Source: Caenorhabditis remanei
Taxonomy: Eukaryota; Nematoda; Chromadorea; Rhabditida; Rhabditidae
NCBI RefSeq assembly: GCF_010183535.1
Contig: NW_026526001.1
Span: 248,001 to 312,000 of the forward strand
Reading direction: 5' to 3'
Length of the DNA stretch: 64,000 nt
Below the pieces are notes generated by a model. It was not told where the DNA came from, made no database searches, and saw nothing but the letters and a program-made list of their open reading frames with translations. This document shows positions 4,602 through 53,987 of the stretch, piece after piece. How positions within the stretch are numbered: position 1 is the stretch's first letter; every line of letters starts with the position of its first letter. Both the position numbers and the translations under genes were made by a program.

Positions 4602-4621
4602 CCCCACCCCCGAAGACAGCA

Positions 4622-28396: not shown

Positions 28397-28403
28397 ACTT
28401 ATG

Positions 28404-30320: not shown

Positions 30321-30533
30321 TTTATGAAATTTCCCCATATCAAAACTACTTCAGACTCATAACTTGGCTACAGATATACTTCACGCTCAAAACTTGGTCA
30401 CAGCAAATTCTGTCTGAAAACTTGTAGAAGCACATGGTTCACAATTATTTATAGGTTATAGGTCAGCATCGACAATTATTTATAGGTGAGCAACGACAAT
30501 TATTTATATGTGGGCAACGACAATTTCATAAGT

Positions 30534-33500
30534 TCAGGCACAAAATCCATATGGGAGTGTAGATCCATCGGAAACGATGCGTCTCTTGTTGAACGTGAAC
30601 TGGAATTTTTTGAAAATCTTTTTGCTGTAGACGTGGTGATATGCATCGCGATACATGACGTGTTGTGGGAATTGAACTCGGGTTCGTTGATATACATCCT
30701 GCAGAACTTCATCCACCATGTTTTTCATCAGATCAAAAGACATTAGGTTTTTGACGACGGAATTGACTGTGATGCCCTTTGCTTTTCGAACGACCTGAAA
30801 ATTTGGTAATCTATCGCATTAAACTTGTTTATACCACTCACCTTCAGGGATTCATCGGCTGACACCTCCTTGTAGCAATACGTTTTGGGACCTAGGGTTA
30901 CAAATTCTGTCATTGCTCCATCCAATTCGTCAGTAAGTTGTCCAAGATAAGGTCCGATTTCTCCTCGCAATGGGTCATTTGATCCTTCGGGTACAGCATA
31001 AATGATTGAGTCCGTATCTGTAAGTTTTGAGTGCGAAAAATTGACCGCTGACTGGAAAATACCTGTGTACATGATGTTTTCCGCACCAACCATCTCCATG
31101 AAGCGGTAGAGTCGAAGACGAGCATAAGACGTAGTGAGTGCAGCAAGTTGCATTTCACTGGTTTTGAAACTTTCAAGAGTTTCTGCCTGTTTCCTGTATT
31201 TGATGATCAGAGCATCATTCACGCATAGTACATCCGAAATGACGATTGTTGTGTCATAGAAAATGTTCCAGAAAACCGTTGGGTCTGTCACTATGCAAGT
31301 CGTTTCTCGATCCACTCGCTGTGCAAATTTGCCCCACTGAAAAAATTGGTTTATCTACAGTGAGAACATTGAAAACCATACCAGTGAATTCAACATCAAC
31401 TTGGCAACAGCTCTCTTCCCTGGATTTTCTGAAAACCGTGAGTAGTCCGTGAGATGAATTTGTTCCTTGTCAAAGTATGCTTTGCAGTACGCGTCTTTTT
31501 GAGCATCTGTGATAACATTTGCTGGCCATCCTGTGCTATACTGAAAACGGCTGAATAAATTAGGCACCCAGCACAGTCTCACTCACAATTTTTTCCTCCA
31601 TCATTTGGTTGATGTACGAGGTGAAAAGTCCTCCACGACCACTTTCATCGTTTTGCACCCAGTTTTCATACTTGACACCCTGCAAAAATAAAATTATATG
31701 AATCCATCAAATACCTGTCTTCACATGGAACACTTCTGTAATTTCGTAGCCTACGCTCAGTGCTTTCTGCAGTTCCACAGTAGTAAACGTTCCGCTGAAC
31801 GAACGATCATTGTCCGAGTGTTCACAATCATGTTGATTTGAGTCTCTGCAGCATTCTGCAGCATTCTGAAAAACTGATGAGGCTTCTATATAGACTTTTT
31901 CCGTGACAAACTTTTACAAAGACCAAACAGGAGTTTTCCGTTGTCCTTGATTGGTAACACTGGTAGCTTCAGATGTCGTGGTGGTAAGACTTTGCAGCTC
32001 AAAAACCCTCGAAATGTCAAATCGGTTGGTTTCCTCATTGGTACTTCCATGGAGTTTCTAGGAACATTTTCAGGTGCACCAATAGGAAATGGATCGTGTT
32101 TCATCACCGTAGGATAGAGACTGAAAAGTCTATAGTTTTTGATGAAAGTAAAGCAGAAAATCACCTGACAACGTCTGCGTATCGAAGTGTTTTACCCTCA
32201 TTGTTGGCGTATAGTCGGAAAACTTCGGTTCTGCCACCTGTCAGTGCCCTGTCGCAGTGTAGAAGTCCCTAAATTCGTTTATGTGCAGATGGTATATGCA
32301 TTGAAATTTTACCACAGCTTCATAGTCTCGAAAAAATGTGGTCATCTCAGGATTTCTCAAAAGCTGCTTCTTCACTTCACATTCCCATACAACTTTGACT
32401 GGGTGAAATTCACGAAGTGCATTCAAACGTTCCTCGTCTTTCAGGCGAATTTCTTTGGCACTTTCACAACCGATCATGGATTCTTCTGAATAAGTGCACT
32501 CGTGTGCATGCCAGTAGCAGCCCTGCAATTGTGATTATTTAGGAATCTCGTAGCTGTGTTCACTTACGAAAAACTCAACGATGAGTCCTTGAGGATATTT
32601 TGGACATGGATGTACAAAACCATCCACTCGGTACCTCCCAATCTGAAAATTTTGCATTATCGTCTGAGAGCCTGTGTGCTTCACTCACCTTTTCTTCACC
32701 ATACGTGGTTGACATGTTCAGCTGCACATCCTCTTTCGAAGCGAACCACGCCAAATATTTTTGACTGACTTCTGATGCATTCATTGATACTGACGGTTTC
32801 ACATCCAAGACAATCGGCTTTTCTGAATCCAAATGATTTCGACGAAACACAAGAGCAGCTGCTGATGCCGCAGTCGTAGACTCCTGAAAGTGTTTGCGTG
32901 GTACAATTTTTACAAAAACTTACCTCCAGAAGACAAACGTTGGTGATTTTTTCAAATTCCGTCTCGAAGAGTCCCATTGAAGTTGCCAGAATGTATACGT
33001 CGTTGTAGCAATACTTGAAAATCTCTTCGACAAAGTTGAAAATTTTGCCTTCATCCCTTTGTGCACTCAAAAATGTTGAAAGTTGCTCTTTGACCGCAGA
33101 CGATTTGTTGTCCATCGCGTAGTGACAATCATCAGGAAGCGGTCCCACGTAAGTGTAGTTTTCGGGTTTGATGAACAACACCGGAAAATCCCTGTAAATT
33201 TCAAGAATAACTTCACTCTGGTCTCACACTGTCATACCCCTTGACGGAATCCACGTTGAACGTCTTTCCAAGTGAGCTCAGACTCATTGACAGGTATCGA
33301 ATTGAGTCAAGAAGTTTTACTCCATTGTGCTCCATGAAAATCAGTTTGGTTCCATCCATGACAAGTTTGGGTGAAGCTTTGTTGCTGGCAATCAAATTCT
33401 CAAGAATGAATTGACCATCGTACCTGAAATATACCACATCTTTGTAATTATAACCAACATCAAGATTTACCCAGATGCATTATGTGCCACGACAACCGCT

Positions 33501-33596
33501 CCTCGGTGGTGATCAGCAAACAGCCACTTTGTCATCTCACTTCCAACATCCACGTTTTGATTCTCGATGGTGATACATTCAATGACCTTCAATCGA
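30534..33596 (-). CDS. A-type protein-primed DNA polymerase B, right copy (5' truncated)
   Basis: Minus-strand exons run from 33596 (inside the exon before ExoII) to the stop at 30534. Exons modelled in the first half: 33596-33471, 33423-33238, 33191-32924, 32883-32689, 32642-32568, 32522-32313 and 32268-32165. The rest mirror the left copy. ExoII (AHNASG then YDGQ), ExoIII (YCYNDVYIL), the GCYWHAHEC...VVWECE insert, GGRT, motif A (DVVSLYP), motif B (NSLWGK), motif C (DTDS, about 31007-31017 plus 31063) and the LPYGF tail are all present in open exons. Unlike the left copy I see no internal frameshift. The N-terminal domain, zinc region and ExoI are missing because element B begins at 33597, so a full enzyme cannot be made from this locus. 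pPolBs replicate linear DNA using a terminal protein as primer. Confidence 0.88.
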
Positions 33597-33617
33597 CACA
33601 ACCAGGCAAGGGTTGTG
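33597..33617. other. Terminal hairpin, left end of element B
   Basis: CACAACC and GGTTGTG form a perfect 7-bp stem around the 7-nt loop AGGCAAG, exactly at the outer limit of the palindrome. The same 21 nt end the other side (49860-49880). Short terminal palindromes are found at ends of some linear replicons and could act as an origin or as a resolved hairpin end (inference). Confidence 0.75.
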
Positions 33618-33821
33618 CGAGTTGAGGGCAAAGGTAATGGTGGTCATTGTCTTAGGCAGTTTTCGTCATTTTTATGGCGCATATATTGTGTAGAGAGCCA
33701 CAAGCACATGCGATTTCAATAAAATTTTATTTGTTTTTCATTAATTATCAACATTTTTGCTGTTTTATTCTTTAAAAAAACCAAATTATAGGAGAAGGAA
33801 ACGGACAGACAATAGCAGTAT

Positions 33822-34326
33822 TTAGTTTTGAAGGGTATCATCATTTGGTTGAGGAGAGATTGGCGATGTCGACTGTGGCAGGTTTTTACATGAAGAGCTC
33901 GATGAGCTGAAAGATTTGAACAAATATTAACAAAGATAATGATTGTTACCTCGGAACTCTGGCAATAAACAGTTCAGAAATTGGATAGAAGCGGCCATAC
34001 TTATCCTTCACAACAAATTGTTCATCAGTAATTTTATCCCTGCTCTGGCCGTTGGTATAGTCAAGCAAGTTAACACCGTCTTGAACAGAGGGAACTTCGC
34101 TTGGATACTTGGGAATCACATCAGGCCATTCAATAATTCGACCGTCTTTTTTATAGAAAATGGCTTCATCTCTTGCCATTAGATCCATTGTGAATCGTAC
34201 ATGAGCAGTATGCTGCATGAGATTTGAGGGCACACACAAAGGACGATATCTTATTTCTCTGTAAGCACGAGCTAGTAGACGACGACTTGTATACTGTTTG
34301 TCTCGAATGTCCTGAAGAGGGTCCAT
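33822..34326 (-). CDS. Gene S, left copy: element-borne small protein of unknown function
   Basis: Two exons, 34326-33950 and 33906-33822 (stop TAA 33824-33822), with a 43-bp intron ending TTTCAG, give 153 residues. A further upstream exon in the 5' UTR is suggested by an acceptor near 34388. The first in-frame ATG (34326) is used; an out-of-frame ATG in a CCATGG context lies a little upstream. The product is polar, with a conserved middle (YRPLC, then AIFYKKDGR) and a PISELFIARVPR segment before a Ser/Pro-rich tail. A diverged paralogue lies in the loop (41998-42596), so conservation is at protein level. I find no known domain, signal peptide or membrane segment. It is divergent from the polymerase and always travels with it here. 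Roles such as terminal protein or DNA-binding protein are only guesses. Confidence 0.75.
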
Positions 34327-34747
34327 GCAATTGCAGTTGTTACCATGGTTACCGGATTGTTTCAATTCTTGGGAAATTGTTGAAAATCTGTAAAAACAAT
34401 TATAGAAAAGGAAGAGCCCAGAATAAGGTCACATACCACTATGCCGTAATAAATCACGAATGGCACGATTGTTTCACGTGACGGTTGAAAATATTGAAAT
34501 ATAGAACGAGAGAGTACATAGAGAAGAGACGAAGAGAACAAAGAGTGGTTAGAGAAATGATGACGTCATCATCCAAAAAGTAACAGCTGACTTTCGTTGA
34601 GGGGGATTCGAGAAATTCATAATTTGGGGCTCATTTTCACATTTTTACCGGATGGTAAGTGGTGACCTATTTCTGAGCTCTCTTGTTTTTTCTCTTTCAT
34701 TTCTTTACTTCATTTTGTTCTATTCTTCAGCTTTTTTTTTTTCAGTT
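34327..34747. promoter_or_regulatory. Bidirectional promoter region between S and pPolB, left arm
   Basis: The two genes are divergent with 421 bp between their ATGs. On the + side an intron in the 5' UTR (GT at 34655, acceptor TTTTTCAG at about 34745) lies just before the polymerase ATG; on the - side a UTR intron precedes S. A TGATGACGTCATCA palindrome at about 34558-34571 is a perfect CRE/ATF-type site (TGACGTCA) midway between the genes. Confidence 0.55.
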
Positions 34748-37700
34748 ATGAAACGCAAAGCGCTCAACACTCACAATTCCCTAGGAGGACCACATCCACC
34801 AAGCAGACTTGAACCGAAGGCGAAAATGACAAAGAAAAAACCAGAAAGTCGATTAGTTGGAAAAGAAGAAATCAAAGATCGCACAAGTACGGAAAGAATC
34901 GACCAGAGAAAAGATCAAAATCAACCATCAACCAGTTCACCTCAGAATCAAGGAGAATTTTCAGAAGAAAAGGAAAGACCTTCAAATGCTAAACAAGCCA
35001 GAATAGTTTCGAAGCAGAGACTGAAGCGTAAGTCATAATGTGGATATAAATAATTTTAATTATTCATTTCAGATGGCAGGGGATCACGACGAAAAACACG
35101 ATTCCGAGAATATGAAAGAAGCGAGACGTTTCCAACAGCCGAGGAAGAAGAGTTCTTCACAGAAAATGTGATAACTTCTAATGAACCACACTTTCGCAGA
35201 CACAATAACCAGTTTCTTATTTCGGATACGGTTAGGATGAAATTCACCAATCTTGATGAAGTTAAAGACAACAAGATGCTTCATGTTCATGTGGCTAAAC
35301 TTTTAGACATTTTTATCCGCAGAATGCTCAAAAAAGCTGGAGGAAATTTGAAAACAACCAAATATTGGCTTCAGTAAGTTTTTATAAGTTCCAATTTTTG
35401 CTGATGAGTAATTTTACAGATTGAACCATGATGGCTACACCGATAACGATGGCTTCTTCGTAACTCACAAAACATATGCCGTGGCGGATGGAGGGGCTAT
35501 CATGAATACAATAGCAAAACAAATGCAATCAAATAAAGAGCTACGTTTAGATGAAAGCTTTACTGTTGCTATGAACGTTTTCAAGGATAAACAAGCACGA
35601 CTACGAGGCCGGGGAACACATAATACTCGAAAAACTGATAAAATCGATAAAATCAGAAAAGAAATATTGGTAAGGCATATTATCTTTTGTCAAATTATAA
35701 TACTTTTCATAACAGAAACAACATTTTGGCGTTAGCCTCTGCAGGATTACGGGAATGAGTCATTGTCTACCAAAGGCACTTGCACTAGGAAAACTGGAAA
35801 GTGATATACAAACCACGACCAACGGAGACCAAAAACAGAAAATGGAAAAGTTTTATCGAAGTCTCGTAAGACCAGAGGTACTCTTGACATTTGATTGTTT
35901 GTAATATGTGTTTTTACAGATAACGTTTACATTCAAAAGCGAAGTTCAAGGAAAACTTGCCAGACAGCTTTTGGCCGATGCAGGGATGGATGTGAACAAG
36001 GAGGAGCATGACCGAAAAGATCTTCAAGAGCTTGCAAAATATCTTTCAAACTATCAAATAATATTATGGACAGCAAACAATCAACATGCCGTCCCAACTG
36101 AAGAAAAGCGATACAACCAGGATGGAGAAGGGTTCATTGGATTATTTTATTATGAAGGTCATTATGAACACGTCACCCACACCAAAGGAAAACATGCATC
36201 AAGGTAAGCTACCATCTTATCGCCAAAGAAGATGTTTTTCAGATTTTGTTTCCAATGCTCTACTTTCGACGACGACCAGCACTACCGAAAATGTAAAGCC
36301 AAATGCAAGAGATGTGGCAGCACAGGATGCAAACACGAAGATGAGAACATTTATTGCAAAATTTGTAAAATTTACTTTCGAAGTAAAAATTGTTTTAATG
36401 CCCATCTCACTGCACAATCAAAGAAGGGAATACCGCATTGCAAGAAATATAGCAGGTGACTAATCAATTTGACCAACATTACTAAAGGCTTACAGATGCG
36501 AAAATTGTAATATAATTGATAGAGCAGAGAGGATTCGTGGAGAAACACACGTCTGTAAAGCAAAGGACTTCTGTTCTATATGCAGGGAGAAAGCATTGAA
36601 AGGACATACTTGTGCCCACCACGTCCCTGACGAGAAGGAAAAGTTGAAGAAGCGAGAAAACCAAACGCAATGGGTCATTATCGTCTATGATATGGAATGT
36701 ATTGTGTCGGAGTCAGGAGAATTCAATGGTAAGGGACATCAACATTCAACGTTTAAATTCATCTTTCAGGACATGTTGAAAGAGGGCCTAAGCACAAACC
36801 CAACTTTATTTGCGTAAGAATGATCTGCAGTGATTGTCGAGGAGAAGCAGGATGTCAATTATGTTTCCAACCATGGACCTACAGCTACAAGGATTTTCCG
36901 CCTTTCAAAAATAACAAACACGATTCTCCATTAGCTAGTTTTGCAGATTTCCTGCTACATAATCCGCGGGCAGCGGGTGCTTACATTATAGCACACAATG
37001 GTGGAAGGTATGTTTCAGTAATAAACTTTTTCAATTTTCAGGAAATTTCCAGATATGACCATGTTATGTTGCTAGCAGAGCTCGATAGACAAGGAGGCAC
37101 AAAGGCAAAAGAACCAAAAATTTTACTGAATGGAATGACAATCATTACGGCAGAGTTTGAATATGAAAAAAGAAAGCTGCATTTTCGTGATTCGTTTCAA
37201 TACTTGCAAATGGGACTAGCCAAAATGCCTGGAGCTTTTGGCCTAGAGGGCGAGGCAAAGGGCTTTTTTCCTCATCTATACAACCATCCAGACAATTACA
37301 ATAGGGAATTGAAGACTTTGCCATCGAAAGAATACTATAGTCCACAATTCATGACACCATCCACAAGAAAGGAATTTGATGAGTGGTATGCCAAGTGCTA
37401 TCATGATGGGTTCAAGCTACATGATGAGCTGCTAAAGTATTGCCAATCTGATGTACGTATTCTCACTTTAACGTTGATGGCTTTCATACAGGTAAGTAGA
37501 CAAGGTTTTTATGAAATACTTTCTTTTTTTACAGATGTGTGAATCAACTTTCAATGGCTGGAACCCAATTGTGAATGGATGTACGATAGCGTCCTATGTC
37601 ATGTTCGTATTGAAGCACGAATACATCAAAAAGGGAGATGTCGGATATATTCCTGAGAACGGTTATGGAGGAGGAAACAATTCAATGTTAGCGTTAAAGT

Positions 37701-39764
37701 ATCTCCAATGGCTGGAGAAAATTGATCCAGCGTTACATTTAAAGTACAAATTACGTGGAGGAGAAGTCAAAATTGAAGCAGATGGGCACTCTTACTATGC
37801 AGACGCTTTCAATGAGGCCACAAATGAAGTTTTTGAGGTATTTTTTTGTATACGAACCACTACCCGCACACACACACACACTGACCCCAAGGAAAACTGA
37901 ACCTCACAACAAGTGAGGCGAAGGAAGCCTTTTTTCTCTATATTGCTCCGAATAATAACAATTTTCATGTAATTTTTCAGATTTATGGATGTGTATGGCA
38001 CGGGTGCCCAAAGTGTTATCCGGATCGTGACAAGAAATGTCCAATGAAACCCAACAAGACAATGGAAGATTTGTATAAGGAAACCATAATGAGAAAAGAA
38101 GCTATTCAGAATGAGGGATTCAATATCAGTGCTGTTTGGGAATGTGAAATATACGAACAGATGGAGAAAGATAGAGAGATGCAAAAATTCTTTGAACTGG
38201 TAAGTTGAAATCAATAATTAAAATGAATGAGTCGTTTTTTAGAATAAGTACGACCAAAGGCTTAAGCCTCGTGAAGCATTATATGGAGGAAGAACGCAAG
38301 CATTTCGTTCAATGGCAGCAGCATTCGACGATACGCTTCTGAGTTATTTTGATTTCAATAGCTTATACCCATATCTTAATGCGGGAGGCACAGCTTACCC
38401 GCGAGGAAACCCTACTGTGGAGTTTGAAAACTTTCCCAGACTAGATGAACCGTTGGAACTGAAAGGTATGTCAACTTTTTTACCTTTTTACTAATAATTT
38501 CATTTTTTAGGAATTGTGTTTTGTGATGTTCTGCCCCCACAAGATGCAGCCATGGGATATTTACCTCAGAAAATAATGAAGAAGCTCATGTTTGTTCTAT
38601 GTAGAACGTGTGCGAATGATCAGAATATTGAAGGAAAGTGTACACATACCAAGGTCTCTGAACGATTTTTGACCGGAGTATGGTGCACAGATGAACTGAA
38701 TAAGGCCATTTCCAAAGGGTACAAGGTGCTCAAGTACCACGAAATCTGGCATTGGCCAGAAGAGGCATGGGTCAAAGGAGGATTCTTTGCTGATTACATC
38801 AAGCCATTATTGAAACTGAAGCATGAAAGCAGTGGATGGCCAAAGGAAAATATGACAGACGTAGAAAAGAAAGCTTACATCGCAAGAATATGGGAGATGG
38901 ATGGAGTCAAACTGGATCCCTCGAAAATTAAAAAGAACAAAACATTGCGGAGCCTTTGCAAAATATTCCTTAACTCTGCCTGGGGTAAGTAGATATTTGT
39001 TATTTTCTAATGTTTTTACTTTTCTTTTTTCAGGAAAGTTCGCACAAAATCCAATGAAGACCGAGACAAGACTCGTCTACAACACTGATGGCCTTACAAT
39101 GGCCAATTTTTTCAATGACCCCAATTTTGAACCGACAGGAATGCTTCCTTATGGAGAGCACAAGTATTTCATATCAAGAAGGCCCAAGAAAGATTTTCTC
39201 AAGGCATCACCATTTACAAATCTTGCTATCGCGGCAATCACAACATGTGCGGCCAGATTAAGACTTACTGAAGCTATAGAGAGAGTTGGAATAGAGAATA
39301 TGATTTATTGTGGTAAGTGAATAAATGCTAGAAAGAATATAATTATCACGTTTTCAGATACCGACTCTGTGATTTTCAAACAGAAGAAAGACAGCGACCC
39401 TCTGGGGGACCTCAAAGGAGACAATTTAGGCTACTTAACTAATGAAATTCCACCAGGGAATGAACTGGTTGAAGCCGTAGCGATGGCTCCAAAAGTTTAT
39501 GCATTGAAGATAAGACACAAGGATGGCAGCTACAACTATACAGTCAAAGCAAAAGGAATGTGTTTGAACAGTGGAAACACAGGAAGTATCAACTTTGACA
39601 CTATGAAAGAGAGTGTGAGTATCAGATGCGTATTATTTTGGCAAACTTATTCTTTTCAGATGAATACATTTATTCGAGATGGTATAGTAGCACCCATGGA
39701 GGGTGAGATGCTGACGTTCAAGAGAGGGATAACGCGCTGGATGGTCTTTGGACATGCGCAATGA
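34748..39764 (+). CDS. B-type protein-primed DNA polymerase B, left copy (intact, 16 exons)
   Basis: Exons: 34748-35027, 35073-35373, 35420-35669, 35716-35877, 35920-36203, 36243-36455, 36496-36728, 36770-37007, 37053-37491, 37535-37837, 37981-38199, 38243-38465, 38511-38984, 39034-39312, 39358-39614, 39660-39764. Phases close perfectly to 1,419 residues. In order: a Lys/Ser-rich tail; an N-terminal domain with QSN; an OTU-like pattern (HCLPKAL, later GHYEHV); a Cys-rich zinc region (36250-36640); ExoI YDME (36686-36697), ExoII AHNGGR/YD (36991-37058), ExoIII YCQSDV (37438-37455); a Vsr-like insert (YGCVWHGCPKC, VWECE); GGRT (38285-38296); motif A DFNSLYP (38351-38371), motif B NSAWGK, motif C DTDS (39312, 39358-39368). 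All exonuclease and polymerase metal ligands are present. The frame ends at TGA 39762-39764, and C-terminal homology seems to continue one frame over (see findings). Confidence 0.92.
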
Positions 39765-39936
39765 AGAAGCAACTCAACCCAAGGATGGATAAGGGACACT
39801 ATGTGGATGGCGTTGTAGCACCATTTGGGCAACTCCCAGGAAACATACAATTGATCAATGATTATCCTTTCTGACATTGTAAATAAATATTGAATATAAT
39901 TTTTCGTGAATATAGGAATATTTGTCAGCAATTTGT

Positions 39937-40044
39937 GCACAATTCAAACACAATTCAAACACAATTTGCACAATCTTTGCACAATCTTTGCACAATCTTT
40001 GCACAATCTTTGCACAATTCAAACACAATTCAAACACAATCTTT
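39937..40044. repeat. 11-bp iteron-like tandem array, left arm of B
   Basis: About ten consecutive 11-bp units of two kinds, CACAATCTTTG and CACAATTCAAA, lie about 170 bp behind the polymerase stop. The unit length is close to one DNA turn, so bound proteins would line up on one face. The mirror array is at 43434-43541. Confidence 0.9.
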
Positions 40045-40910
40045 ACATGAAAAATTATACAGAAATCATTAACTTTTCAGTTAAAACGTGAAAAAATATT
40101 GAAATTTTACCTGTAAACACACTAATATTCAAGTTTTTGATGGCCCGAGGCCTGAATTTTAGAGGATCTGCAATATTTTATAGGTATGGATAGATATTTC
40201 TGAAGGGGGCACACATTTTCAGCGATAGATGCAGATTTCTGAAGGCAAGAGGTGGCATTTTTGAAGGCCTAGTATACTTTTTAAGCACTGGGACACAGGT
40301 TATTGAGTCAGAAAGCTTACTTTTCATGTGTATTTACACTTTTTGAGAGCATATATGGTCACTTTGGAAGGATTACTATACATTTTAAGCGCTGGCATGC
40401 ACATTTTCGCCAATGATTATGTACATTTTCAAAGTTCGCGCCTATGTAAACATCATTTTCAATGGTAGACAATGTTGGTTGTGAGGGGGCCTAACGAAAA
40501 AACGCTGATTTCTAGTAGAAAAATAGAAAAAATTACTGACATGATCACTTTTTTCGAATTCATACTATTAATGTGATGGCGAAACATAGGTATTTATGAG
40601 ACCTTGAAATGTGAAATTCACTATGTTGTGAAGAAGCAGGCACATGTTTGAAGAATGAGCACATATATTCCAAAGCTGTCAACCCGTGTACATGCACATA
40701 AATCGCGCACAGACACATGTTCTGGGGGCGCGTAAGAACATTATTTATGATGATTAGTCACATTTTGAGAGAAAATGGACAAATTTTTGGCATTATTGTG
40801 TAAAGAATAGAACAATAACACAATTTTATTGACGAATTTGATAAAATCAGAAGAATAAGGAAAAAATATGTCACAACACAATTATTCATTCATTGATCTG
40901 ACAATTGGTA
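40045..40910. other. Non-coding inner part of left arm B
   Basis: AT-rich DNA with loosely repeated phrases such as ACATTTTC and AAGCGCTGG and no usable open frame. The last 29 bases (40882-40910) are the reverse complement of the 3' end of the S paralogue found in the loop. Confidence 0.6.
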
Positions 40911-41324
40911 TATCTTAATGCGGGAGGCACAGCTTACCCGCGAGGAAACCCTACTGTGGAGTTTGAAAACTTTCCCAGACTAGATGAACCGTTGGAACTG
41001 AAAGGTATGTCAACTTTTTTACCTTTTTACTAATAATTTCATTTTTTAGGAATTGTGTTTTGTGATGTTCTGCCCCCACAAGATGCAGCCATGGGATATT
41101 TACCTCAGAAAATAATGAAGAAGCTCATGTTTGTTCTATGTAGAACGTGTGCGAATGATCAGAATATTGAAGGAAAGTGTACACATACCAAGGTCTCTGA
41201 ACGATTTTTGACCGGAGTATGGTGCACAGATGAACTGAATAAGGCCATTTCCAAAGGGTACAAGGTGCTCAAGTACCACGAAATCTGGCATTGGCCAGAA
41301 GAGGCATGGGTCAAAGGAGGATTC
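40911..41324 (+). pseudogene. Copied 414-bp fragment of the B polymerase (motif A-B region) in the loop
   Basis: Bases 40911-41324 copy 38372-38785 of the left-arm polymerase (offset 2539) without a visible difference, intron included. The fragment starts just after motif A and stops inside exon 13. It sits precisely where palindrome symmetry ends. It encodes no complete domain. Confidence 0.93.
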
Positions 41325-41358
41325 CAACTGTCGTACGCAAACCAACTGTCGTACGCAA
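41323..41358. repeat. Tandem 18-bp duplication CCAACTGTCGTACGCAAA
   Basis: Two adjacent exact copies (41323-41340, 41341-41358) lie at the junction of the copied polymerase fragment with unique loop sequence. The 8-mer GCGTACGT just downstream (around 41388) resembles the GTCGTACGC core. Confidence 0.8.
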
Positions 41359-41997
41359 ATTTTGCGGGCGGGTCATTTTTCTGCGAGGGCGTACGTTAAA
41401 TTCGGGTCTCTTATCCCAATCTACTCGCGGTTATGTGTCAGTTGGTGAACAATTTCGATGTGTTGAATAAAATGGGGGAAGTATGATATTTTCCGGAAAA
41501 TTTTCAAAATAAAAAATTAATTTTTTTTAATTCTTTAAAAGTACATGAAAGAATGGATAATGTGAAAAAGAGTAATTTGGAGATATGATTTAAATTTTCT
41601 AAATCAAGAATTGCCTTATAGGATTTACATGTTGCTATGATGTAGGTATGTCTCCCACAACATGACCGGGTGAATGAACACGTGTGCGAAATAAAAGTAG
41701 TGGGATTTTGATTATATTTTAACTATTTTAGCAATTTTTGATTTATGTACATGGTTTTCTCTGCGTCTCTCACTCTTTCACCTACAGTTCTTCATTTTTT
41801 GACTTAATTCATTCTTAAATTTTGACGCCATCTAGAGAGGTTATCTATATTCGTGGCTCTCGTGAGATTTTATTGTGACTTTATGGATTCGGATTCGTGC
41901 GAAGGTTTCGATAAATGCGAAGATTTGAGAGATGTGACATCCAAACTGGACAGCAATGCTTCCGACTCAAAGACGCTGAACCATTAAGTATGCGAGA
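41359..41997. other. Unique loop DNA
   Basis: AT-rich DNA with no gene, found once in the window. It includes pyrimidine-rich CTGCGTCTCTC similar to the centre of palindrome A. Confidence 0.6.
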
Positions 41998-42596
41998 ATC
42001 GTTTTCGTGAATTCAAACAATCCACTTACAAGGAAATTCACAAGATGTATTGCGCTTTGAAGAAAATTGGATACCTTCCTCTTTGTCCTGATGTTAATCG
42101 CCGAACAGATTTGGAATACATTCGTGGTTGTTTGGACCAACTGACTGCTGATCAAGCCGTGTTTTACAGCCGAGCTGGGGAGGTCTTGGTTGGTTGTTAT
42201 GTAACTCCACTTCGGCCAACAGAAGTTCAATGTGGATAGGGAAACCTCAACCTTTTCCAATACTTTGTGGCTAAATGGTGCTATAAGATTGATGACAATT
42301 AATATGTCGTGATCAATGGATGTGGTGCTGCTTACCCTGTTTCGGAGTTGTTCATTGTCAGAGTTCCAAGGTAACCCCAACATTCTCTTCACCTCCAATA
42401 CATAATATGTTACAGACCAGCGGCTATGCAAAGCGATAGAGAAGTTCGTGCTCAGAAGAAACGAGACAGCTGCATGAGATGGTTTACGCCTTCGTCTGAT
42501 GCCTCAATTCCTCGTAGCGCTCACTGTCCTCGTGACATGTTGCGCCGGAACGAAATGAACAATATGCTACCAATTGTCAGATCAATGAATGAATAA
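41998..42596 (+). pseudogene. S paralogue in the loop, broken by stop codons
   Basis: Exon 1 (about 41998-42371) and exon 2 (42417-42596) are joined by a 45-bp intron at exactly the place and phase of the intron in gene S. The product matches S in the YLPLC, QAVFYSRAGE and PVSELFIVRVPR segments but is well diverged and has a longer C-terminus. Two in-frame stops (TAG 42237-42239 and a TAA near 42300) break exon 1. The last 29 bases lie in the right arm, and their mirror ends the left arm. Palindrome symmetry therefore begins inside this gene. Confidence 0.8.
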
Positions 42597-43433
42597 TTGT
42601 GTTGTGACATATTTTTTCCTTATTCTTCTGATTTTATCAAATTCGTCAATAAAATTGTGTTATTGTTCTATTCTTTACACAATAATGCCAAAAATTTGTC
42701 CATTTTCTCTCAAAATGTGACTAGTCATCATAAATAATGTTCTTACGCGCCCCCAGAACATGTGTCTGTGCGCGATTTATGTGCATGTACACGGGTTGAC
42801 AGCTTTGGAATATATGTGCTCATTCTTCAAACATGTGCCTGCTTCTTCACAACATAGTGAATTTCACATTTCAAGGTCTCATAAATACCTATGTTTCGCC
42901 ATCACATTAATAGTATGAATTCGAAAAAAGTGATCATGTCAGTAATTTTTTCTATTTTTCTACTAGAAATCAGCGTTTTTTCGTTAGGCCCCCTCACAAC
43001 CAACATTGTCTACCATTGAAAATGATGTTTACATAGGCGCGAACTTTGAAAATGTACATAATCATTGGCGAAAATGTGCATGCCAGCGCTTAAAATGTAT
43101 AGTAATCCTTCGAAAGTGACCATATATGCTCTCAAAAAGTGTAAATACACATGAAAAGTAAGCTTTCTGACTCAATAACCTGTGTCCCAGTGCTTAAAAA
43201 GTATACTAGGCCTTCAAAAATGCCACCTCTTGCCTTCAGAAATCTGCATCTATCGCTGAAAATGTGTGCCCCCTTCAGAAATATCTATCCATACCTATAA
43301 AATATTGCAGATCCTCTAAAATTCAGGCCTCGGGCCATCAAAAACTTGAATATTAGTGTGTTTACAGGTAAAATTTCAATATTTTTTCACGTTTTAACTG
43401 AAAAGTTAATGATTTCTGTATAATTTTTCATGT

Positions 43434-43541
43434 AAAGATTGTGTTTGAATTGTGTTTGAATTGTGCAAAGATTGTGCAAAGATTGTGCAAAGATTGTGCA
43501 AAGATTGTGCAAATTGTGTTTGAATTGTGTTTGAATTGTGC
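43434..43541. repeat. 11-bp iteron-like tandem array, right arm of B
   Basis: Mirror of the array at 39937-40044: repeated ATTGTGCAAAG and TTTGAATTGTG units, about ten in all. Confidence 0.9.
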
Positions 43542-43713
43542 ACAAATTGCTGACAAATATTCCTATATTCACGAAAAATTATATTCAATATTTATTTACA
43601 ATGTCAGAAAGGATAATCATTGATCAATTGTATGTTTCCTGGGAGTTGCCCAAATGGTGCTACAACGCCATCCACATAGTGTCCCTTATCCATCCTTGGG
43701 TTGAGTTGCTTCT

Positions 43714-46700
43714 TCATTGCGCATGTCCAAAGACCATCCAGCGCGTTATCCCTCTCTTGAACGTCAGCATCTCACCCTCCATGGGTGCTACTATACCATC
43801 TCGAATAAATGTATTCATCTGAAAAGAATAAGTTTGCCAAAATAATACGCATCTGATACTCACACTCTCTTTCATAGTGTCAAAGTTGATACTTCCTGTG
43901 TTTCCACTGTTCAAACACATTCCTTTTGCTTTGACTGTATAGTTGTAGCTGCCATCCTTGTGTCTTATCTTCAATGCATAAACTTTTGGAGCCATCGCTA
44001 CGGCTTCAACCAGTTCATTCCCTGGTGGAATTTCATTAGTTAAGTAGCCTAAATTGTCTCCTTTGAGGTCCCCCAGAGGGTCGCTGTCTTTCTTCTGTTT
44101 GAAAATCACAGAGTCGGTATCTGAAAACGTGATAATTATATTCTTTCTAGCATTTATTCACTTACCACAATAAATCATATTCTCTATTCCAACTCTCTCT
44201 ATAGCTTCAGTAAGTCTTAATCTGGCCGCACATGTTGTGATTGCCGCGATAGCAAGATTTGTAAATGGTGATGCCTTGAGAAAATCTTTCTTGGGCCTTC
44301 TTGATATGAAATACTTGTGCTCTCCATAAGGAAGCATTCCTGTCGGTTCAAAATTGGGGTCATTGAAAAAATTGGCCATTGTAAGGCCATCAGTGTTGTA
44401 GACGAGTCTTGTCTCGGTCTTCATTGGATTTTGTGCGAACTTTCCTGAAAAAAGAAAAGTAAAAACATTAGAAAATAACAAATATCTACTTACCCCAGGC
44501 AGAGTTAAGGAATATTTTGTAAGGGTTCCGCAATGTTTTGTTCTTTTTAATTTTCGAGGGATCCAGTTTGACTCCATCCATCTCCCATATTCTTGCGATG
44601 TAAGCTTTCTTTTCTACGTCTGTCATATTTTCCTTTGGCCATCCACTGCTTTCATGCTTCAGTTTCAATAATGGCTTGATGTAATCAGCAAAGAATCCTC
44701 CTTTGACCCATGCCTCTTCTGGCCAATGCCAGATTTCGTGGTACTTGAGCACCTTGTACCCTTTGGAAATGGCCTTATTCAGTTCATCTGTGCACCATAC
44801 TCCGGTCAAAAATCGTTCAGAGACCTTGGTATGTGTACACTTTCCTTCAATATTCTGATCATTCGCACACGTTCTACATAGAACAAACATGAGCTTCTTC
44901 ATTATTTTCTGAGGTAAATATCCCATGGCTGCATCTTGTGGGGGCAGAACATCACAAAACACAATTCCTAAAAAATGAAATTATTAGTAAAAAGGTAAAA
45001 AAGTTGACATACCTTTCAGTTCCAACGGTTCATCTAGTCTGGGAAAGTTTTCAAACTCCACAGTAGGGTTTCCTCGCGGGTAAGCTGTGCCTCCCGCATT
45101 AAGATATGGGTATAAGCTATTGAAATCAAAATAACTCAGAAGCGTATCGTCGAATGCTGCTGCCATTGAACGAAATGCTTGCGTTCTTCCTCCATATAAT
45201 GCTTCACGAGGCTTAAGCCTTTGGTCGTACTTATTCTAAAAAACGACTCATTCATTTTAATTATTGATTTCAACTTACCAGTTCAAAGAATTTTTGCATC
45301 TCTCTATCTTTCTCCATCTGTTCGTATATTTCACATTCCCAAACAGCACTGATATTGAATCCCTCATTCTGAATAGCTTCTTCTCTCATTATGGTTTCCT
45401 TATACAAATCTTCCATTGTCTTGTTGGGTTTCATTGGACATTTCTTGTCACGATCCGGATAACACTTTGGGCACCCGTGCCATACACATCCATAAATCTG
45501 AAAAATTACATGAAAATTGTTATTATTCGGAGCAATATAGAGAAAAAAGGCTTCCTTCGCCTCACTTGTTGTGAGGTTCAGTTTTCCTTGGGGTCAGTGT
45601 GTGTGTGTGTGCGGGTAGTGATTCGTATACAAAAAAATACCTCAAAAACTTCATTTGTGGCCTCATTGAAAGCGTCTGCATAGTAAGAGTGCCCATCTGC
45701 TTCAATTTTGACTTCTCCTCCACGTAATTTGTACTTTAAATGTAACGCTGGATCAATTTTCTCCAGCCATTGGAGATACTTTAACGCTAACATTGAATTG
45801 TTTCCTCCTCCATAACCGTTCTCAGGAATATATCCGACATCTCCCTTTTTGATGTATTCGTGCTTCAATACGAACATGACATAGGACGCTATCGTACATC
45901 CATTCACAATTGGGTTCCAGCCATTGAAAGTTGATTCACACATCTGTAAAAAAAGAAAGTATTTCATAAAAACCTTGTCTACTTACCTGTATGAAAGCCA
46001 TCAACGTTAAAGTGAGAATACGTACATCAGATTGGCAATACTTTAGCAGCTCATCATGTAGCTTGAACCCATCATGATAGCACTTGGCATACCACTCATC
46101 AAATTCCTTTCTTGTGGATGGTGTCATGAATTGTGGACTATAGTATTCTTTCGATGGCAAAGTCTTCAATTCCCTATTGTAATTGTCTGGATGGTTGTAT
46201 AGATGAGGAAAAAAGCCCTTTGCCTCGCCCTCTAGGCCAAAAGCTCCAGGCATTTTGGCTAGTCCCATTTGCAAGTATTGAAACGAATCACGAAAATGCA
46301 GCTTTCTTTTTTCATATTCAAACTCTGCCGTAATGATTGTCATTCCATTCAGTAAAATTTTTGGTTCTTTTGCCTTTGTGCCTCCTTGTCTATCGAGCTC
46401 TGCAAGCAACATAACATGGTCATATCTGGAAATTTCCTGAAAATTGAAAAAGTTTATTACTGAAACATACCTTCCACCATTGTGTGCTATAATGTAAGCA
46501 CCCGCTGCCCGCGGATTATGTAGCAGGAAATCTGCAAAACTAGCTAATGGAGAATCGTGTTTGTTATTTTTGAAAGGCGGAAAATCCTTGTAGCTGTAGG
46601 TCCATGGTTGGAAACATAATTGACATCCTGCTTCTCCTCGACAATCACTGCAGATCATTCTTACGCAAATAAAGTTGGGTTTGTGCTTAGGCCCTCTTTC

Positions 46701-48730
46701 AACATGTCCTGAAAGATGAATTCAAACGTTGAATGTTGATGTCCCTTACCATTGAATTCTCCTGACTCCGACACAATACATTCCATATCATAGACGATAA
46801 TGGCCCATTGCGTTTGGTTTTCTCGCTTCTTCAACTTTTCCTTCTCGTCAGGGACGTGGTGGGCACAAGTATGTCCTTTCAATGCTTTCTCCCTGCATAT
46901 AGAACAGAAGTCCTTTGCTTTACAGACGTGTGTTTCTCCACGAATCCTCTCTGCTCTATCAATTATATTACAATTTTCGCATCTGTAAGCCTTTAGTAAT
47001 GTTGGTCAAATTGATTAGTCACCTGCTATATTTCTTGCAATGCGGTATTCCCTTCTTTGATTGTGCAGTGAGATGGGCATTAAAACAATTTTTACTTCGA
47101 AAGTAAATTTTACAAATTTTGCAATAAATGTTCTCATCTTCGTGTTTGCATCCTGTGCTGCCACATCTCTTGCATTTGGCTTTACATTTTCGGTAGTGCT
47201 GGTCGTCGTCGAAAGTAGAGCATTGGAAACAAAATCTGAAAAACATCTTCTTTGGCGATAAGATGGTAGCTTACCTTGATGCATGTTTTCCTTTGGTGTG
47301 GGTGACGTGTTCATAATGACCTTCATAATAAAATAATCCAATGAACCCTTCTCCATCCTGGTTGTATCGCTTTTCTTCAGTTGGGACGGCATGTTGATTG
47401 TTTGCTGTCCATAATATTATTTGATAGTTTGAAAGATATTTTGCAAGCTCTTGAAGATCTTTTCGGTCATGCTCCTCCTTGTTCACATCCATCCCTGCAT
47501 CGGCCAAAAGCTGTCTGGCAAGTTTTCCTTGAACTTCGCTTTTGAATGTAAACGTTATCTGTAAAAACACATATTACAAACAATCAAATGTCAAGAGTAC
47601 CTCTGGTCTTACGAGACTTCGATAAAACTTTTCCATTTTCTGTTTTTGGTCTCCGTTGGTCGTGGTTTGTATATCACTTTCCAGTTTTCCTAGTGCAAGT
47701 GCCTTTGGTAGACAATGACTCATTCCCGTAATCCTGCAGAGGCTAACGCCAAAATGTTGTTTCTGTTATGAAAAGTATTATAATTTGACAAAAGATAATA
47801 TGCCTTACCAATATTTCTTTTCTGATTTTATCGATTTTATCAGTTTTTCGAGTATTATGTGTTCCCCGGCCTCGTAGTCGTGCTTGTTTATCCTTGAAAA
47901 CGTTCATAGCAACAGTAAAGCTTTCATCTAAACGTAGCTCTTTATTTGATTGCATTTGTTTTGCTATTGTATTCATGATAGCCCCTCCATCCGCCACGGC
48001 ATATGTTTTGTGAGTTACGAAGAAGCCATCGTTATCGGTGTAGCCATCATGGTTCAATCTGTAAAATTACTCATCAGCAAAAATTGGAACTTATAAAAAC
48101 TTACTGAAGCCAATATTTGGTTGTTTTCAAATTTCCTCCAGCTTTTTTGAGCATTCTGCGGATAAAAATGTCTAAAAGTTTAGCCACATGAACATGAAGC
48201 ATCTTGTTGTCTTTAACTTCATCAAGATTGGTGAATTTCATCCTAACCGTATCCGAAATAAGAAACTGGTTATTGTGTCTGCGAAAGTGTGGTTCATTAG
48301 AAGTTATCACATTTTCTGTGAAGAACTCTTCTTCCTCGGCTGTTGGAAACGTCTCGCTTCTTTCATATTCTCGGAATCGTGTTTTTCGTCGTGATCCCCT
48401 GCCATCTGAAATGAATAATTAAAATTATTTATATCCACATTATGACTTACGCTTCAGTCTCTGCTTCGAAACTATTCTGGCTTGTTTAGCATTTGAAGGT
48501 CTTTCCTTTTCTTCTGAAAATTCTCCTTGATTCTGAGGTGAACTGGTTGATGGTTGATTTTGATCTTTTCTCTGGTCGATTCTTTCCGTACTTGTGCGAT
48601 CTTTGATTTCTTCTTTTCCAACTAATCGACTTTCTGGTTTTTTCTTTGTCATTTTCGCCTTCGGTTCAAGTCTGCTTGGTGGATGTGGTCCTCCTAGGGA
48701 ATTGTGAGTGTTGAGCGCTTTGCGTTTCAT
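43714..48730 (-). CDS. B-type protein-primed DNA polymerase B, right copy (intact, 16 exons)
   Basis: Mirror of the left copy: the first exon starts at 48730, the last ends with the stop at 43716-43714, and every exon boundary is found at 83478 minus the left coordinate. All motifs are kept: ExoI, ExoII, ExoIII, the Vsr-like insert, GGRT, DFNSLYP (45127-45107), NSAWGK and DTDS. A small cluster of changes just before motif B (44516-44527) replaces four residues compared with the left copy; a few other silent or conservative changes occur. The early stop in the last exon is shared with the left copy, so it predates the duplication or was spread by gene conversion. Two open copies in one element suggest selection or recent duplication. 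Confidence 0.92.
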
Positions 48731-49150
48731 AACTGAAAAAAAAAAGCTGAAGAATAGAACAAAATGAAGTAAAGAAATGAAAAAGAAAAAACAAGAGAGC
48801 TCAGAAATAGGTCACCACTTACCATCCGGTAAAAATGTGAAAATGAGCCGCAAATTATGAATTTCTCGAATCCCCCTCAACGAAAGTCAGCTGTTACTTT
48901 TTGGATGATGACGTCATCATTTCTCTAACCACTCTTTGTTCTCTTCGTCTCTTCTCTATGTACTCTCTCGTTCTATATTTCAATATTTTCAACCGTCACG
49001 TGAAACAATCGTGCCATTCGTGATTTATTACGGCATAGTGGTATGTGACCTTATTCTGGGCTCTTCCTTTTCTATAATTGTTTTTACAGATTTTCAACAA
49101 TTTCCCAAGAATTGAAACAATCCGGTAACCATGGTAACAACTGCAATTGC
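48731..49150. promoter_or_regulatory. Bidirectional promoter region between pPolB and S, right arm
   Basis: Mirror of the left-arm promoter, including the palindrome TGATGACGTCATCA at about 48906-48919 and both 5' UTR introns. Confidence 0.55.
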
Positions 49151-49655
49151 ATGGACCCACTTCAGGACATTCGAGACAAACAGTATACAAGTCGTCGTCT
49201 ACTAGCTCGTGCTTACAGAGAAATAAGATATCGTCCTTTGTGTGTGCCCTCAAATCTCATGCAGCATACTGCTCATGTACGATTCACAATGGATCTAATG
49301 GCAAGAGATGAAGCCATTTTCTATAAAAAAGACGGTCGAATTATTGAATGGCCTGATGTGATTCCCAAGTACCCAAGCGAAGTTCCCTCTGTTCAAGACG
49401 GTGTTAACTTGCTTGACTATACCAACGGCCAGAGCAGGGATAAAATTACTGATGAACAATTTGTTGTGAAGGATAAGTATGGCCGCTTCTATCCAATTTC
49501 TGAACTGTTTATTGCCAGAGTTCCGAGGTAACAATCATTATCTTTGTTAATATTTGTTCAAATCTTTCAGCTCATCGAGCTCTTCATGTAAAAACCTGCC
49601 ACAGTCGACATCGCCAATCTCTCCTCAACCAAATGATGATACCCTACAAAACTAA
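49151..49655 (+). CDS. Gene S, right copy
   Basis: Exons 49151-49527 and 49571-49655 encode the same 153 residues as the left copy, with stop TAA 49653-49655. It is transcribed outward, toward the terminal hairpin, 205 bp from its stop. See the left copy for the description of the protein. Confidence 0.75.
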
Positions 49656-49859
49656 ATACTGCTATTGTCTGTCCGTTTCCTTTTCCTATAATTTGGTTTT
49701 TTTAAAGAATAAAACAGCAAAAATGTTGATAATTAATGAAAAACAAATGAAATTTTATTGAAATCGCATGTGCTTGTGGCTCTCTACACAATATATGCGC
49801 CATAAAAATGACGAAAATTGCCTAAGACAATGACCACCATTACCTTTGCCCTCAACTCG

Positions 49860-49880
49860 CACAACCCTTGCCTGGTTGTG
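49860..49880. other. Terminal hairpin, right end of element B
   Basis: CACAACC, loop CTTGCCT, GGTTGTG: the reverse complement of the left terminus. The following bases, TGAGGCGTGG, do not match the left flank, so no duplicated target is visible. Confidence 0.75.
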
Positions 49881-50059
49881 TGAGGCGTGGGTCTCTCCAA
49901 TTCTTAACAGCTCAGAGAGACAATACAAAAGAAAAATTTTGAATTTGGTTTTTGATTGTGCAATTATCACCCCATAGACCCGCTATGTATGAAAACTATC
50001 ACCAGAAAAACAGGCGAACTCACCTTGATGGGCTTTAGGTCTTGGTCAAATCTGAAACT

Positions 50060-51020
50060 ACCACTACTGAAAGACGGTTCTTAACTTACCTGCTGGCGCT
50101 CATAAGACGCTATATCTTGTGGTGAAATTCGGCCATAAGACGTGCTCTGGTCAGGTTTCGATCCTGGAGCTCTTGTCATGTTTCAATCTCATGGTAGAAT
50201 TATCACCACAAAACCGGTGATTCAGATGTCGGTAATTTACCCATATGGCTCGCCTTCGACGCGTTTTTTTAGCTCTGTGAGTGACTTCGCTCTGGTTAGT
50301 TTTTGAACCCCTGAGAACCTGATGGTGCCTTAAAGCTGGTTGTCAGTGGCTAGTCTTTCAGCACCTCATGGCAAAATTACCTTCACCCGATGTTAGGCTG
50401 AATGTCGTCAATTTGCCCAGATGACCCTATAGGTCAGGCCTGCTGGCACGCCTTCGGCACATTTTTGGCTTCTTTTTGCTCTCCCTCTGACCTCGGGTCT
50501 GGCTAACCTTTGATATGGGTGCCTATGGATGGCCACCTTGCATCTCATGGCGAAATTCATAGCTTAGTGAAGGCTAGATACCGTGAACTTCACCATGTTG
50601 ATTTATTTATTTTATTTATTTATTTACTTCAAGGGATAGGAGACTATAAGATACAAAGAAGACTTGAAACATATCCCTCACGAGATAGTCTCAAGTAAAG
50701 AAAAAAAAATAGGACTAATAAGGTGCATGTCATAAAAAGAGTAACGGGGGGAAGGCAACAAATGAAATGACTGCAACGGGTTCGAACTGAGATATGGAAT
50801 TGAGATCAAGGGGAATTAAAGGAACTAGGCAATTAAAGGGGAACTAGGCAATTAAATGTGACCCTACAGGTCCAATCATCTGGCGCACCTTCAGCGTATT
50901 TTTCGGCTCTGTTTTGCTCTCACTCTGGCCAGGTCTCAGGCTAGCTTTCGGTCTCAAGCCAAGCGCGAATGCCGTCATTCACAAAATCTCATGGTAAATT
51001 TCACGACATCATGGTAAATT
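50060..51020. repeat. Degenerate dispersed or tandem repeat block
   Basis: Phrases such as CTCATGG(C/T)(A/G)AAATT, GGC(T/A)CGCCTTC(G/A)GCGCA and TTTTGCTCTC(A/C)CTCTGG recur roughly every 170-220 bp (around 50200, 50370, 50450, 50540 and 50880-51000) in diverged form. This looks like an old tandem array or an internally repetitive transposon. No gene is present. Confidence 0.55.
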
Positions 51021-51824
51021 TCACCTACCATACTACTTCTGTTGTCTGTGGCGACAGACCTGCAGTTAAAAGTGCATATCCTTAGATCGGTTTTTCTGGT
51101 TTTTGGCCGGGTTAACTTTGTCCTTTTTGAATGGTAGACATTCATAACTCCGAGATTAGATCGCCTCTCTCGACGTGCTACTGCATCTACCGTAACAGTT
51201 GCAGAGGCCGAGTGCGGAGGACTGAGGCAGGTTTTGGTGCTGTTTTGAGCGGGTTGGGTGTCTCTGGTTACTTTACTATGGTCTGCTAAACCAATGCTAA
51301 AGCCGCCCGGTCACAGAGAGTATTCGACGCTACCTCTGACCTGCGTGAGACGTTGTACTTCTTGGCCAGATGTTTCACTACCGGTGTGACGAATTCGCCG
51401 GGTTTGTAGAAGTGTAACATCTGTTGATCTTCTTCGCCGCGAAAAGGCTCAGTACAGAAGAACTCTTCCCTTCATCAATCAGGGAGGGCCCTCAATCGAA
51501 ATCGAAAACGAAACCTGCCTCCTCCGTATTTTTTGACTCGAAACAGCGACCAGAAGGATGAATATTTTTTGAAAAAAGTAAGACGTCATTTTCCAATTTA
51601 AAAAGCCATCCTCTCTAGCCATCTCATCCATCACACCATCTGCCTGTTGAATATACGAAACCTCCTTCTTTTTTGATTTCTAACTCGAATGAAGAATATT
51701 TATTCTTATTTTAAAAGGGGAGAAACAAAAACCATGTAAAGGGAAAACCTCAGCAAAAGAGGTGAACTAACAAAACAACTATGAAGAACTCGAAAAAATG
51801 TTTCTATCATGGCTAAACTTGACA
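51021..51824. other. Spacer without a gene
   Basis: Mixed-composition DNA with no open frame or repeat I can support. Confidence 0.45.
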
Positions 51825-53979: not shown

Positions 53980-53987
53980 TTCTGAAA

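What the first reader, a model, noticed from the sequence alone, without database searches (positions are those of the whole stretch)
33597..49880. A 16-kb palindromic element with two intact pPolB genes and a private small gene S, but no integrase or capsid
Seen: 7.3-kb arms in inverted orientation, each with an open 16-exon protein-primed PolB (about 1,419 codons, all exonuclease and polymerase motifs kept) and gene S. Known: pPolB occurs in Polintons/Mavericks, adenoviruses, linear plasmids and related elements; Polintons normally add an RVE integrase, ATPase, protease and capsid genes. None of these is found here. Inference: a distinct class of self-replicating element whose unit may be a linear DNA fixed as an inverted dimer. 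Small arm differences argue against a simple assembly duplicate.
Basis: partly seen in the sequence, partly recalled or inferred. Interest (0 to 1): 0.92.

Follow-up and report, generated by a model that had tools for sequence, protein, structure and literature searches.

The report
Palindromic fold-back Mavericks in a nematode
The 16-kb palindrome is a damaged member of a group of mirror-image transposons, roughly 19-22 kb long, that probably arose several times in this roundworm when virus-like Maverick elements lost their integrase side and doubled the side carrying the DNA-copying enzyme.

Summary
The palindrome is real and one of many. Contig lengths identify the assembly as Caenorhabditis remanei. 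There, 131 polymerase (PF03175) matches merge into 76 gene copies; 38 form 19 close pairs, all tail-to-tail. All eight pairs fetched are palindromes, arms 99.7-100% identical. Of 12 palindromes with both ends read, 10 have 6-bp target-site duplications; ends start 5'-AGTAG. An integrase-bearing Maverick in the same genome shares that start, has a 6-bp duplication and is 22.2 kb long. Maverick-type integrase lies within 7 kb of 0 of 38 paired and 23 of 38 unpaired polymerases. In a polymerase tree, palindromic and integrase-bearing copies interleave; well-supported branches force at least five label changes. One palindrome keeps the integrase's last 41 residues in both arms. Best reading: integrase-less fold-back (copy-back) derivatives of Mavericks, of several origins, that insert as units, probably using Maverick integrase in trans. 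The window copy is damaged: left end lost, right end at 51037, not 49880. 'Distinct class' is not supported; 'inverted dimer' is.

The parts
33596..51037 (.). damaged palindromic Maverick derivative (called P2 here); left terminus lost, right terminus at 51037
33596..40910 (+). left arm (outer ~1.2 kb and inner S' part missing)
42568..49881 (-). right arm, part shared with the left arm (99.75%)
49882..51037 (-). outer part of right arm up to the true terminus; matches both ends of the relatives at C1:15.15M and C4:1.87M at 98-99%
50599..50855 (.). ~257-bp stretch absent from the relatives at C1:15.15M and C4:1.87M
34748..39871 (+). pPolB gene, left copy, many exons; last ~48 codons in another frame
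43607..48730 (-). pPolB gene, right copy, same frame change
33828..34386 (-). gene S, left copy (main exon 33952-34386, 3' exon 33828-33890)
49091..49649 (+). gene S, right copy
41988..42593 (+). S', decayed paralogue of S with in-frame stops; by orientation belongs to the right half
40910..41324 (+). 415-bp exact copy of polymerase sequence 38371-38785 placed between left arm and centre
41325..41409 (.). remains of the palindrome centre, by comparison with the C1:15.157M centre
33213..33597 (-). broken polymerase gene of another Maverick family, cut at the left edge of P2

Best explanation
P2 is a damaged copy of a palindromic, integrase-less derivative of a Maverick (Polinton). Shown: the genome holds canonical Mavericks (one polymerase plus a convergent integrase) and, in several polymerase lineages, palindromes that carry the polymerase side twice in mirror image; in the two cases compared with an integrase-bearing sibling (N and O) the shared sequence stops inside the 3' end of the integrase gene. 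Ten palindromes inserted as units with 6-bp target duplications. Inferred: during protein-primed, strand-displacement replication a displaced or broken single strand folded back on a short inverted repeat and primed a copy of its own arm. That gave a linear duplex with the same protein-primed origin at both ends, which can be copied by its own polymerase and inserted by a canonical Maverick's integrase supplied in trans. New rounds through a fold-back intermediate, or gene conversion between arms, keep the arms alike. The window's lineage, with accessory genes S and S', became a propagating satellite family.
For: All 19 close polymerase pairs are tail-to-tail. Eight of 8 fetched pairs are near-perfect palindromes with spacers of 0-353 bp. 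Six-bp duplications at 10 of 12 palindromes with both ends read, with flanks that are not mirror images. Same AGTAG start, a 6-bp duplication and 22.2 kb length in the canonical Maverick C6:16519263-16541467. Maverick-type integrase within 7 kb of 0 of 38 paired and 23 of 38 unpaired copies. Polymerase tree: starred branches force at least 5 label changes; N beside C4:1.95M and O beside C5:18.92M/C6:16.53M are nearly identical in the piece used. O carries the last 41 integrase residues in both arms; N's match ends about 34 bp inside the integrase frame. Arms 99.7-100% alike within elements, 86-98% between. Centres of F and N, two lineages, are framed by AGTAG-type inverted repeats with unlike spacers. 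In M's left arm the class AGTAG[AT]3GG occurs only at the two arm ends. PolB dN/dS 0.085-0.091.
Against: No extrachromosomal or hairpin form was seen; everything is from one assembly. The AGTAG centre motif is clear in 4 of 9 centres read (M, I, F, N); A, C, S and T lack it and O has it on one side only. I and K lack target duplications; I's left flank equals L's, and K's right end is cut beside Ns, so some joins in the assembly may be wrong. The window's sister copy on C108 has inverted flanks, so this locus gives no insertion proof of its own. Integration in trans is inferred from end type and duplication length only. Forced label changes need not all be gains of the palindromic state, label shuffles reach the same number of changes in 135 of 500 cases, and ten inner forks are open. 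B and R, two of the lineages, are palindromes by their paired polymerases only. Family A has no close integrase-bearing sibling in the tree. One paired copy (C4:24.92M) has an rve match within 7 kb, but it lies outside that element.
Confidence: 0.75

Rival explanations
1. Assembly or library artefact: palindromic reads or misjoined inverted copies.
For: Arms are up to 100% identical. The C108 copy has inverted flanks, and I and K show odd joins.
Against: An artefact would mirror the flanks too; 10 of 12 palindromes have non-mirrored flanks with 6-bp direct duplications. Among 121 rve matches that I classed as retroelement-type only 5 opposite-strand pairs lie within 25 kb, and among 29 classed as Maverick-type none. 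P2 arms differ at 18 sites. The centre of N shows no similarity to those of M, I and F.
Confidence: 0.07
2. A distinct, autonomous class of palindromic pPolB element unrelated to present Mavericks.
For: The S-bearing lineage has its own genes S and S' and 11 palindromic copies besides the window locus.
Against: Polymerases interleave with integrase-bearing Mavericks; shared terminus type and duplication length; integrase remnants in two palindromes.
Confidence: 0.08
3. Palindromes form in the chromosome after insertion, by break repair or fold-back inversion of one arm, not during the element's own replication.
For: Fold-back inversions through single-strand hairpins are reported for yeast chromosomes (PMC7467729, abstract start seen in the listing only).
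Against: Six-bp duplications enclose whole palindromes, and palindromes with related centres recur at different sites (M, I and C centres 85-91% alike). So the palindrome itself moves.
Confidence: 0.1
4. Arm identity is kept only by gene conversion between arms inside the chromosome.
For: Would also give high identity within and lower identity between elements.
Against: Does not explain how palindromes arose in several lineages; not separable here from homogenisation at replication.
Confidence: 0.25

Closest known systems
Polinton/Maverick elements (e.g. C6:16519263-16541467 in this genome)
   Same: pPolB of the same lineages, 5'-AGTAG ends, 6-bp target duplication, about 19-22 kb
   Different: palindromes carry the polymerase side twice, lack an integrase gene, and showed no recognised capsid, ATPase or protease gene
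Copy-back or snap-back defective virus genomes, and symmetric end recombinants of adenovirus (recalled, not read)
   Same: one origin-bearing end duplicated in mirror image; helper functions in trans
   Different: here in germline chromosomes, transposing, with selected polymerase genes
Parvovirus/AAV rolling-hairpin dimers (PMC11575299, listing only; dimers recalled)
   Same: self-primed fold-back synthesis gives inverted dimers
   Different: protein-primed polymerase and integration; hairpin step only inferred here
Cytoplasmic linear plasmids with pPolB (PMC11071308, abstract and passages)
   Same: capsid-less descendants of polintons carrying pPolB
   Different: plasmids, not chromosomal palindromes with target duplications

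Membership tests
[quoted passage not shown]
   PF03175 and motifs; homologues in Caenorhabditis and other animals
Polinton/Maverick | retroviral-like (rve) integrase gene | tested here: not met
   no rve match inside the extents of 19 palindromes (for B and R only the stretch between the polymerases, for O, S and T only the fetched stretch); Maverick-type integrase near 0 of 38 paired polymerases; 3' remnants only, in O and S
Polinton/Maverick | 6-bp target-site duplication | tested here: met
   10 of 12 palindromes with both ends read; canonical control; 6 bp for Polinton stated in PMC10045372 (passages). Not testable at the window copy, whose left end is lost
Polinton/Maverick | 5'-AG termini with inverted repeats | tested here: met
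   AGTAG at the termini of the 12 palindromes read, except K's cut right end, and in the canonical copy; AG as the family rule is recalled
Polinton/Maverick | packaging ATPase | tested here: not met
   Pox_A32 only at C6:17.84M and C122:226725, outside palindromes; none in 135 arm ORFs. The same search also found none near the integrase-bearing polymerase copies of the tree, so the profile may be insensitive
Polinton/Maverick | jelly-roll capsid proteins and cysteine protease | tested here: inconclusive
   no Pfam match in 135 arm ORFs of 6 palindromes; no Polinton-specific capsid profile was run and capsids of the canonical copies were not examined
Copy-back defective genome | progenitor type with a single copy of the duplicated side and the missing genes | tested here: met
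   integrase-bearing siblings of N, O, B, T/R and the S lineage in the tree; colinear pieces for N and O. B and R are palindromes by pairing only
Copy-back defective genome | propagated by a helper in trans | not testable with these tools
   needs a transposition or packaging assay

The most novel reading that the evidence does not exclude
Mavericks in C. remanei repeatedly throw off palindromic copy-back genomes that act as heritable defective-interfering or satellite elements. They are copied by their own polymerase through a fold-back intermediate, inserted and perhaps packaged by intact Mavericks in trans, and kept near full Maverick length (about 19-22 kb) by a packaging limit. One lineage gained genes S and S' and now outnumbers its closest integrase-bearing relatives.
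Probability: 0.35. Interest if true: 0.92.

Novelty: new variant of a known kind. Interest (0 to 1): 0.82.

Why it matters
It would show that protein-primed virus-like transposons generate mirror-image derivatives able to multiply as transposons. That gives a natural record of fold-back replication products in an animal germ line, a possible built-in parasite of Mavericks, and a genetic system in a laboratory worm relative to test how protein-primed elements replicate and whether they package DNA.

Tried and rejected
Considered and dropped. (a) A larger S-PolB-S' tandem array: dropped once relatives showed S' inside each half. (b) A clean insertion of P2 into the neighbouring polymerase gene: the other half of that gene is not at the right flank. 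(c) The 99-bp satellite as part of the palindromes: no match in the loci held. (d) Fold of S: model too poor to search (mean pLDDT 48). (e) Viral contigs: 316 pattern matches, none confirmed as a relative. (f) The centre AGTAG motif as a universal mark: clear in 4 of 9 centres. (g) An end swap between the two S lineages (outer and centre motifs exchanged): seen, but not explained by gene order.

Literature: no report of palindromic Mavericks appeared in the listings (open PMC library, listings with abstract starts). Subscription papers on Caenorhabditis Mavericks were not seen.

Limits: the genome tool scores only the best candidates (91 of 322 for the polymerase family, 150 of 232 for rve, 113 of 233 for the integrase), so counts are lower bounds. 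The 76 copies come from merging same-strand matches less than 3.5 kb apart. In one search I used 31 of the 150 rve matches, chosen by frame length and place; the split into 121 retroelement-type and 29 Maverick-type is also mine. At least C79 and C153 'singles' look like palindromes cut by contig ends, and C2:14.88M and C4:20.27M like right halves. In the tree no row was dropped for length.
Full report
WHAT IS IN THE WINDOW. Self-comparison gives two adjacent palindromes. P1 is 25600-33406, arms about 92% alike. P2 is 33596-40910 / 42568-49881, 99.75% alike: 18 substitutions and one 1-nt gap. P2 is the finding. Each P2 arm carries a protein-primed family-B polymerase and gene S. The polymerase shows readable Exo and Pol motifs (YDMEC, HNGGRYD, YCQSD, DFNSLYP, NSAWGK, YCDTDS; motif names recalled). 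Its upstream part has a Cys and a His in contexts (SHCLPKAL, EGHYEH) that look like the vOTU protease part described for polinton polymerases in PMC11071308 (abstract and passages); this is my reading, not a test. The last ~48 codons lie in another frame from about 39,728 in both arms; the relative at C2:1.16M is open there.

WHERE IT IS. Contig lengths of the window's assembly (17,247,545; 25,790,997; 22,502,457) equal those listed for C. remanei proteins GCK72_003249, GCK72_015987 and GCK72_020502. The window is C122:248001-312000 of a 130.5-Mb, 186-contig assembly.

THE PATTERN IS GENOME-WIDE. PF03175 gives 131 matches (91 of 322 candidates scored), which I merged into 76 gene copies. Of these, 38 sit in 19 pairs less than 20 kb apart, and all 19 pairs are tail-to-tail. 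As a control, of 150 rve matches I classed 121 as retroelement-type, which give 5 opposite-strand pairs within 25 kb, and 29 as Maverick-type, which give none. I fetched eight pairs (A, C, I, M, N, O, S, T): all eight are palindromes with arms 99.7-100% alike over about 8 to 11 kb and spacers of 0-353 bp; four of them (N, O, S, T) ran past the fetched edge.

THEY ARE INSERTIONS. Reading both ends of 12 palindromes (A, C, D, E, F, H, I, J, K, L, M, Q), 10 have direct 6-bp duplications: AACAAT (M), TACATC (A), GATGAC (C), CTCCAT (J), TGAGAT (L), ATCGGA (E), GTCATT (H), AACCAA (Q), AATATA (F), TGAATG (D). I and K do not; I shares L's left flank and K's right end is cut beside Ns. Termini start AGTAG, K's right end excepted. 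Total lengths of the ten are 18.7-22.3 kb. For seven of the 19 (B, N, O, R, S, T and the window) both ends were not established.

WINDOW COPY CORRECTED. The ends of the closest relatives F (C1:15.15M) and D (C4:1.87M) match the window at 50856-51037 and about 49450-50598, so P2's right terminus is 51037. The left arm stops at 33596 against a broken polymerase gene of another family (33213-33597; 33362-33597 is the reverse complement of 63765-64000 at 98%). F's centre region maps to window 41343-42648; the left half of P2 has lost its inner part and holds a 415-bp copy of polymerase sequence instead. Contig C108 has a second copy of this locus, 98.7-99% alike, whose two flanks are inverted copies of each other. 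The window locus is therefore not itself proof of insertion.

GENE CONTENT. In the S-bearing lineage the half is S, polymerase, S'. In the protein set S has one hit and S' two, all C. remanei. A Pfam scan of 135 ORFs (134 of at least 76 aa that match neither polymerase nor S, from A, I, N, O, S and T, plus one S) found no integrase, capsid, ATPase or protease; six stray families matched one ORF each, best E 0.00023. The control piece from a canonical Maverick gave rve (9.8e-11) and Chromo (1.8e-5). M and C were left out of that scan as relatives of I; the other palindromes were not fetched whole.

RELATION TO MAVERICKS. Maverick-type integrase lies within 7 kb of 0 of 38 paired copies and 23 of 38 unpaired copies (from the 114 matches). 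With rve matches instead, it was 1 of 38 and 16 of 38; that one lies outside its element. The canonical copy at C6 spans 16519263-16541467 (22,205 bp), holds a polymerase and an integrase, begins AGTAGTGTTAGG and has a 6-bp duplication AGAATC. 6 bp is the stated length for Polintons (PMC10045372, passages). A tree of 41 polymerase pieces puts palindromic N beside integrase-bearing C4:1.95M, O with C6:16.53M, C5:18.92M and C159, B with C1:13.17M and C4:24.30M, T and R with C2:19.73M and C4:5.73M, and the window lineage beside C40/C112. Starred branches force at least five changes of label. Against this: pieces are short, ten inner forks are open, changes need not all be gains, label shuffles reach the same count in 135 of 500 cases, and B and R are palindromes by pairing only. 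Homology between O and its canonical sibling ends inside the integrase gene, and O keeps the last 41 residues in both arms. N's match ends about 34 bp inside the integrase frame. The palindrome called S keeps a decayed integrase tail. No integrase remnant was found in the held pieces of A, C, I, M, T or in P2. O's outer 700 bp matches the terminal repeats of canonical copies at 77-82%; N's outer 700 bp is identical to the polymerase side of C4:1.95M.

HOW IT MOST LIKELY WORKS. Shown for N, and consistent for O: the arms start with a Maverick end and the polymerase and lack the rest. Shown: arms of one element are 99.7-100% alike while different S-lineage elements are 86-98% alike, so arms are homogenised after families split. 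Shown: polymerase under purifying selection between the window copy and I, M and C (dN/dS 0.091, 0.085 and 0.088 over 1172-1173 codons) while S evolves fast (0.63-0.82 over 144 codons). Inferred: fold-back priming. In M, I, F and N the palindrome centre is framed by an AGTAG-type inverted repeat like the element ends. In M's left arm the motif class occurs only at the arm's two ends, and in F the mirror symmetry stops exactly at the 10-mer. A 3' end of this kind could snap back and prime copying of the whole arm. A, C, S and T do not show it and O has it on one side only, so another seed or decay must be allowed. A nested mini element with Maverick-type ends at the centre is another reading of the same motif. 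I's centre folds as a strong hairpin (z -24), but that follows partly from its own inverted repeats. Inferred: insertion by a Maverick integrase in trans. The length match to canonical elements suggests a packaging limit; this rests on one canonical length and is speculative.

VERDICT. Palindromic, integrase-less fold-back derivatives of Mavericks, probably of several origins, of which the window holds a damaged copy. New variant of a known kind.

Noticed in passing
window 10220-25431: 15-kb array of a 99-bp satellite directly abutting palindrome P1; no match in the loci held.
   Followed up: partly
window 25600-33597: P1: an older palindrome (arms ~92%) of a different Maverick polymerase family, related to the near-perfect palindrome at C2:19.21M (73-78%).
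   Followed up: partly
window 62014-64000: Start of a third polymerase gene, of the P1 family, on the + strand, running off the window.
   Followed up: no
window 4523-9087: Gypsy-like retroelement: gag-like frame on + and pol frame with rve on -, in opposite orientation, so probably a rearranged copy.
   Followed up: no
window 51790-54009: Foldback element with ~400-bp inverted ends (86.5%); a related sequence (like window 53977-54776) interrupts the left arm of the sister copy on C108.
   Followed up: partly
G000:C122:219934-227312 (left of the window): Maverick-type integrase and Pox_A32-type ATPase matches 20-28 kb left of the window.
   Followed up: no
G000:C5:21371717-21383927 and C3:13394916-13407124: Mirror-symmetric matches around two further centres without a PF03175 match in the list nearby: possibly palindromic elements without polymerase.
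   Followed up: no
G000:C3:3564195-3564513: 319-bp stretch with both terminal sequences of the S-lineage palindromes facing each other: a mini element made of ends only.
   Followed up: no
G000:C40:56276-145542: Two integrase-bearing Maverick copies in inverted orientation about 85 kb apart with integrases identical at protein level.
   Followed up: no
centres of F versus M and I: Outer and centre motifs are exchanged between the two S lineages (AGTAGTATGG versus AGTAGATTGG) and S' is inverted relative to the polymerase; unexplained.
   Followed up: partly
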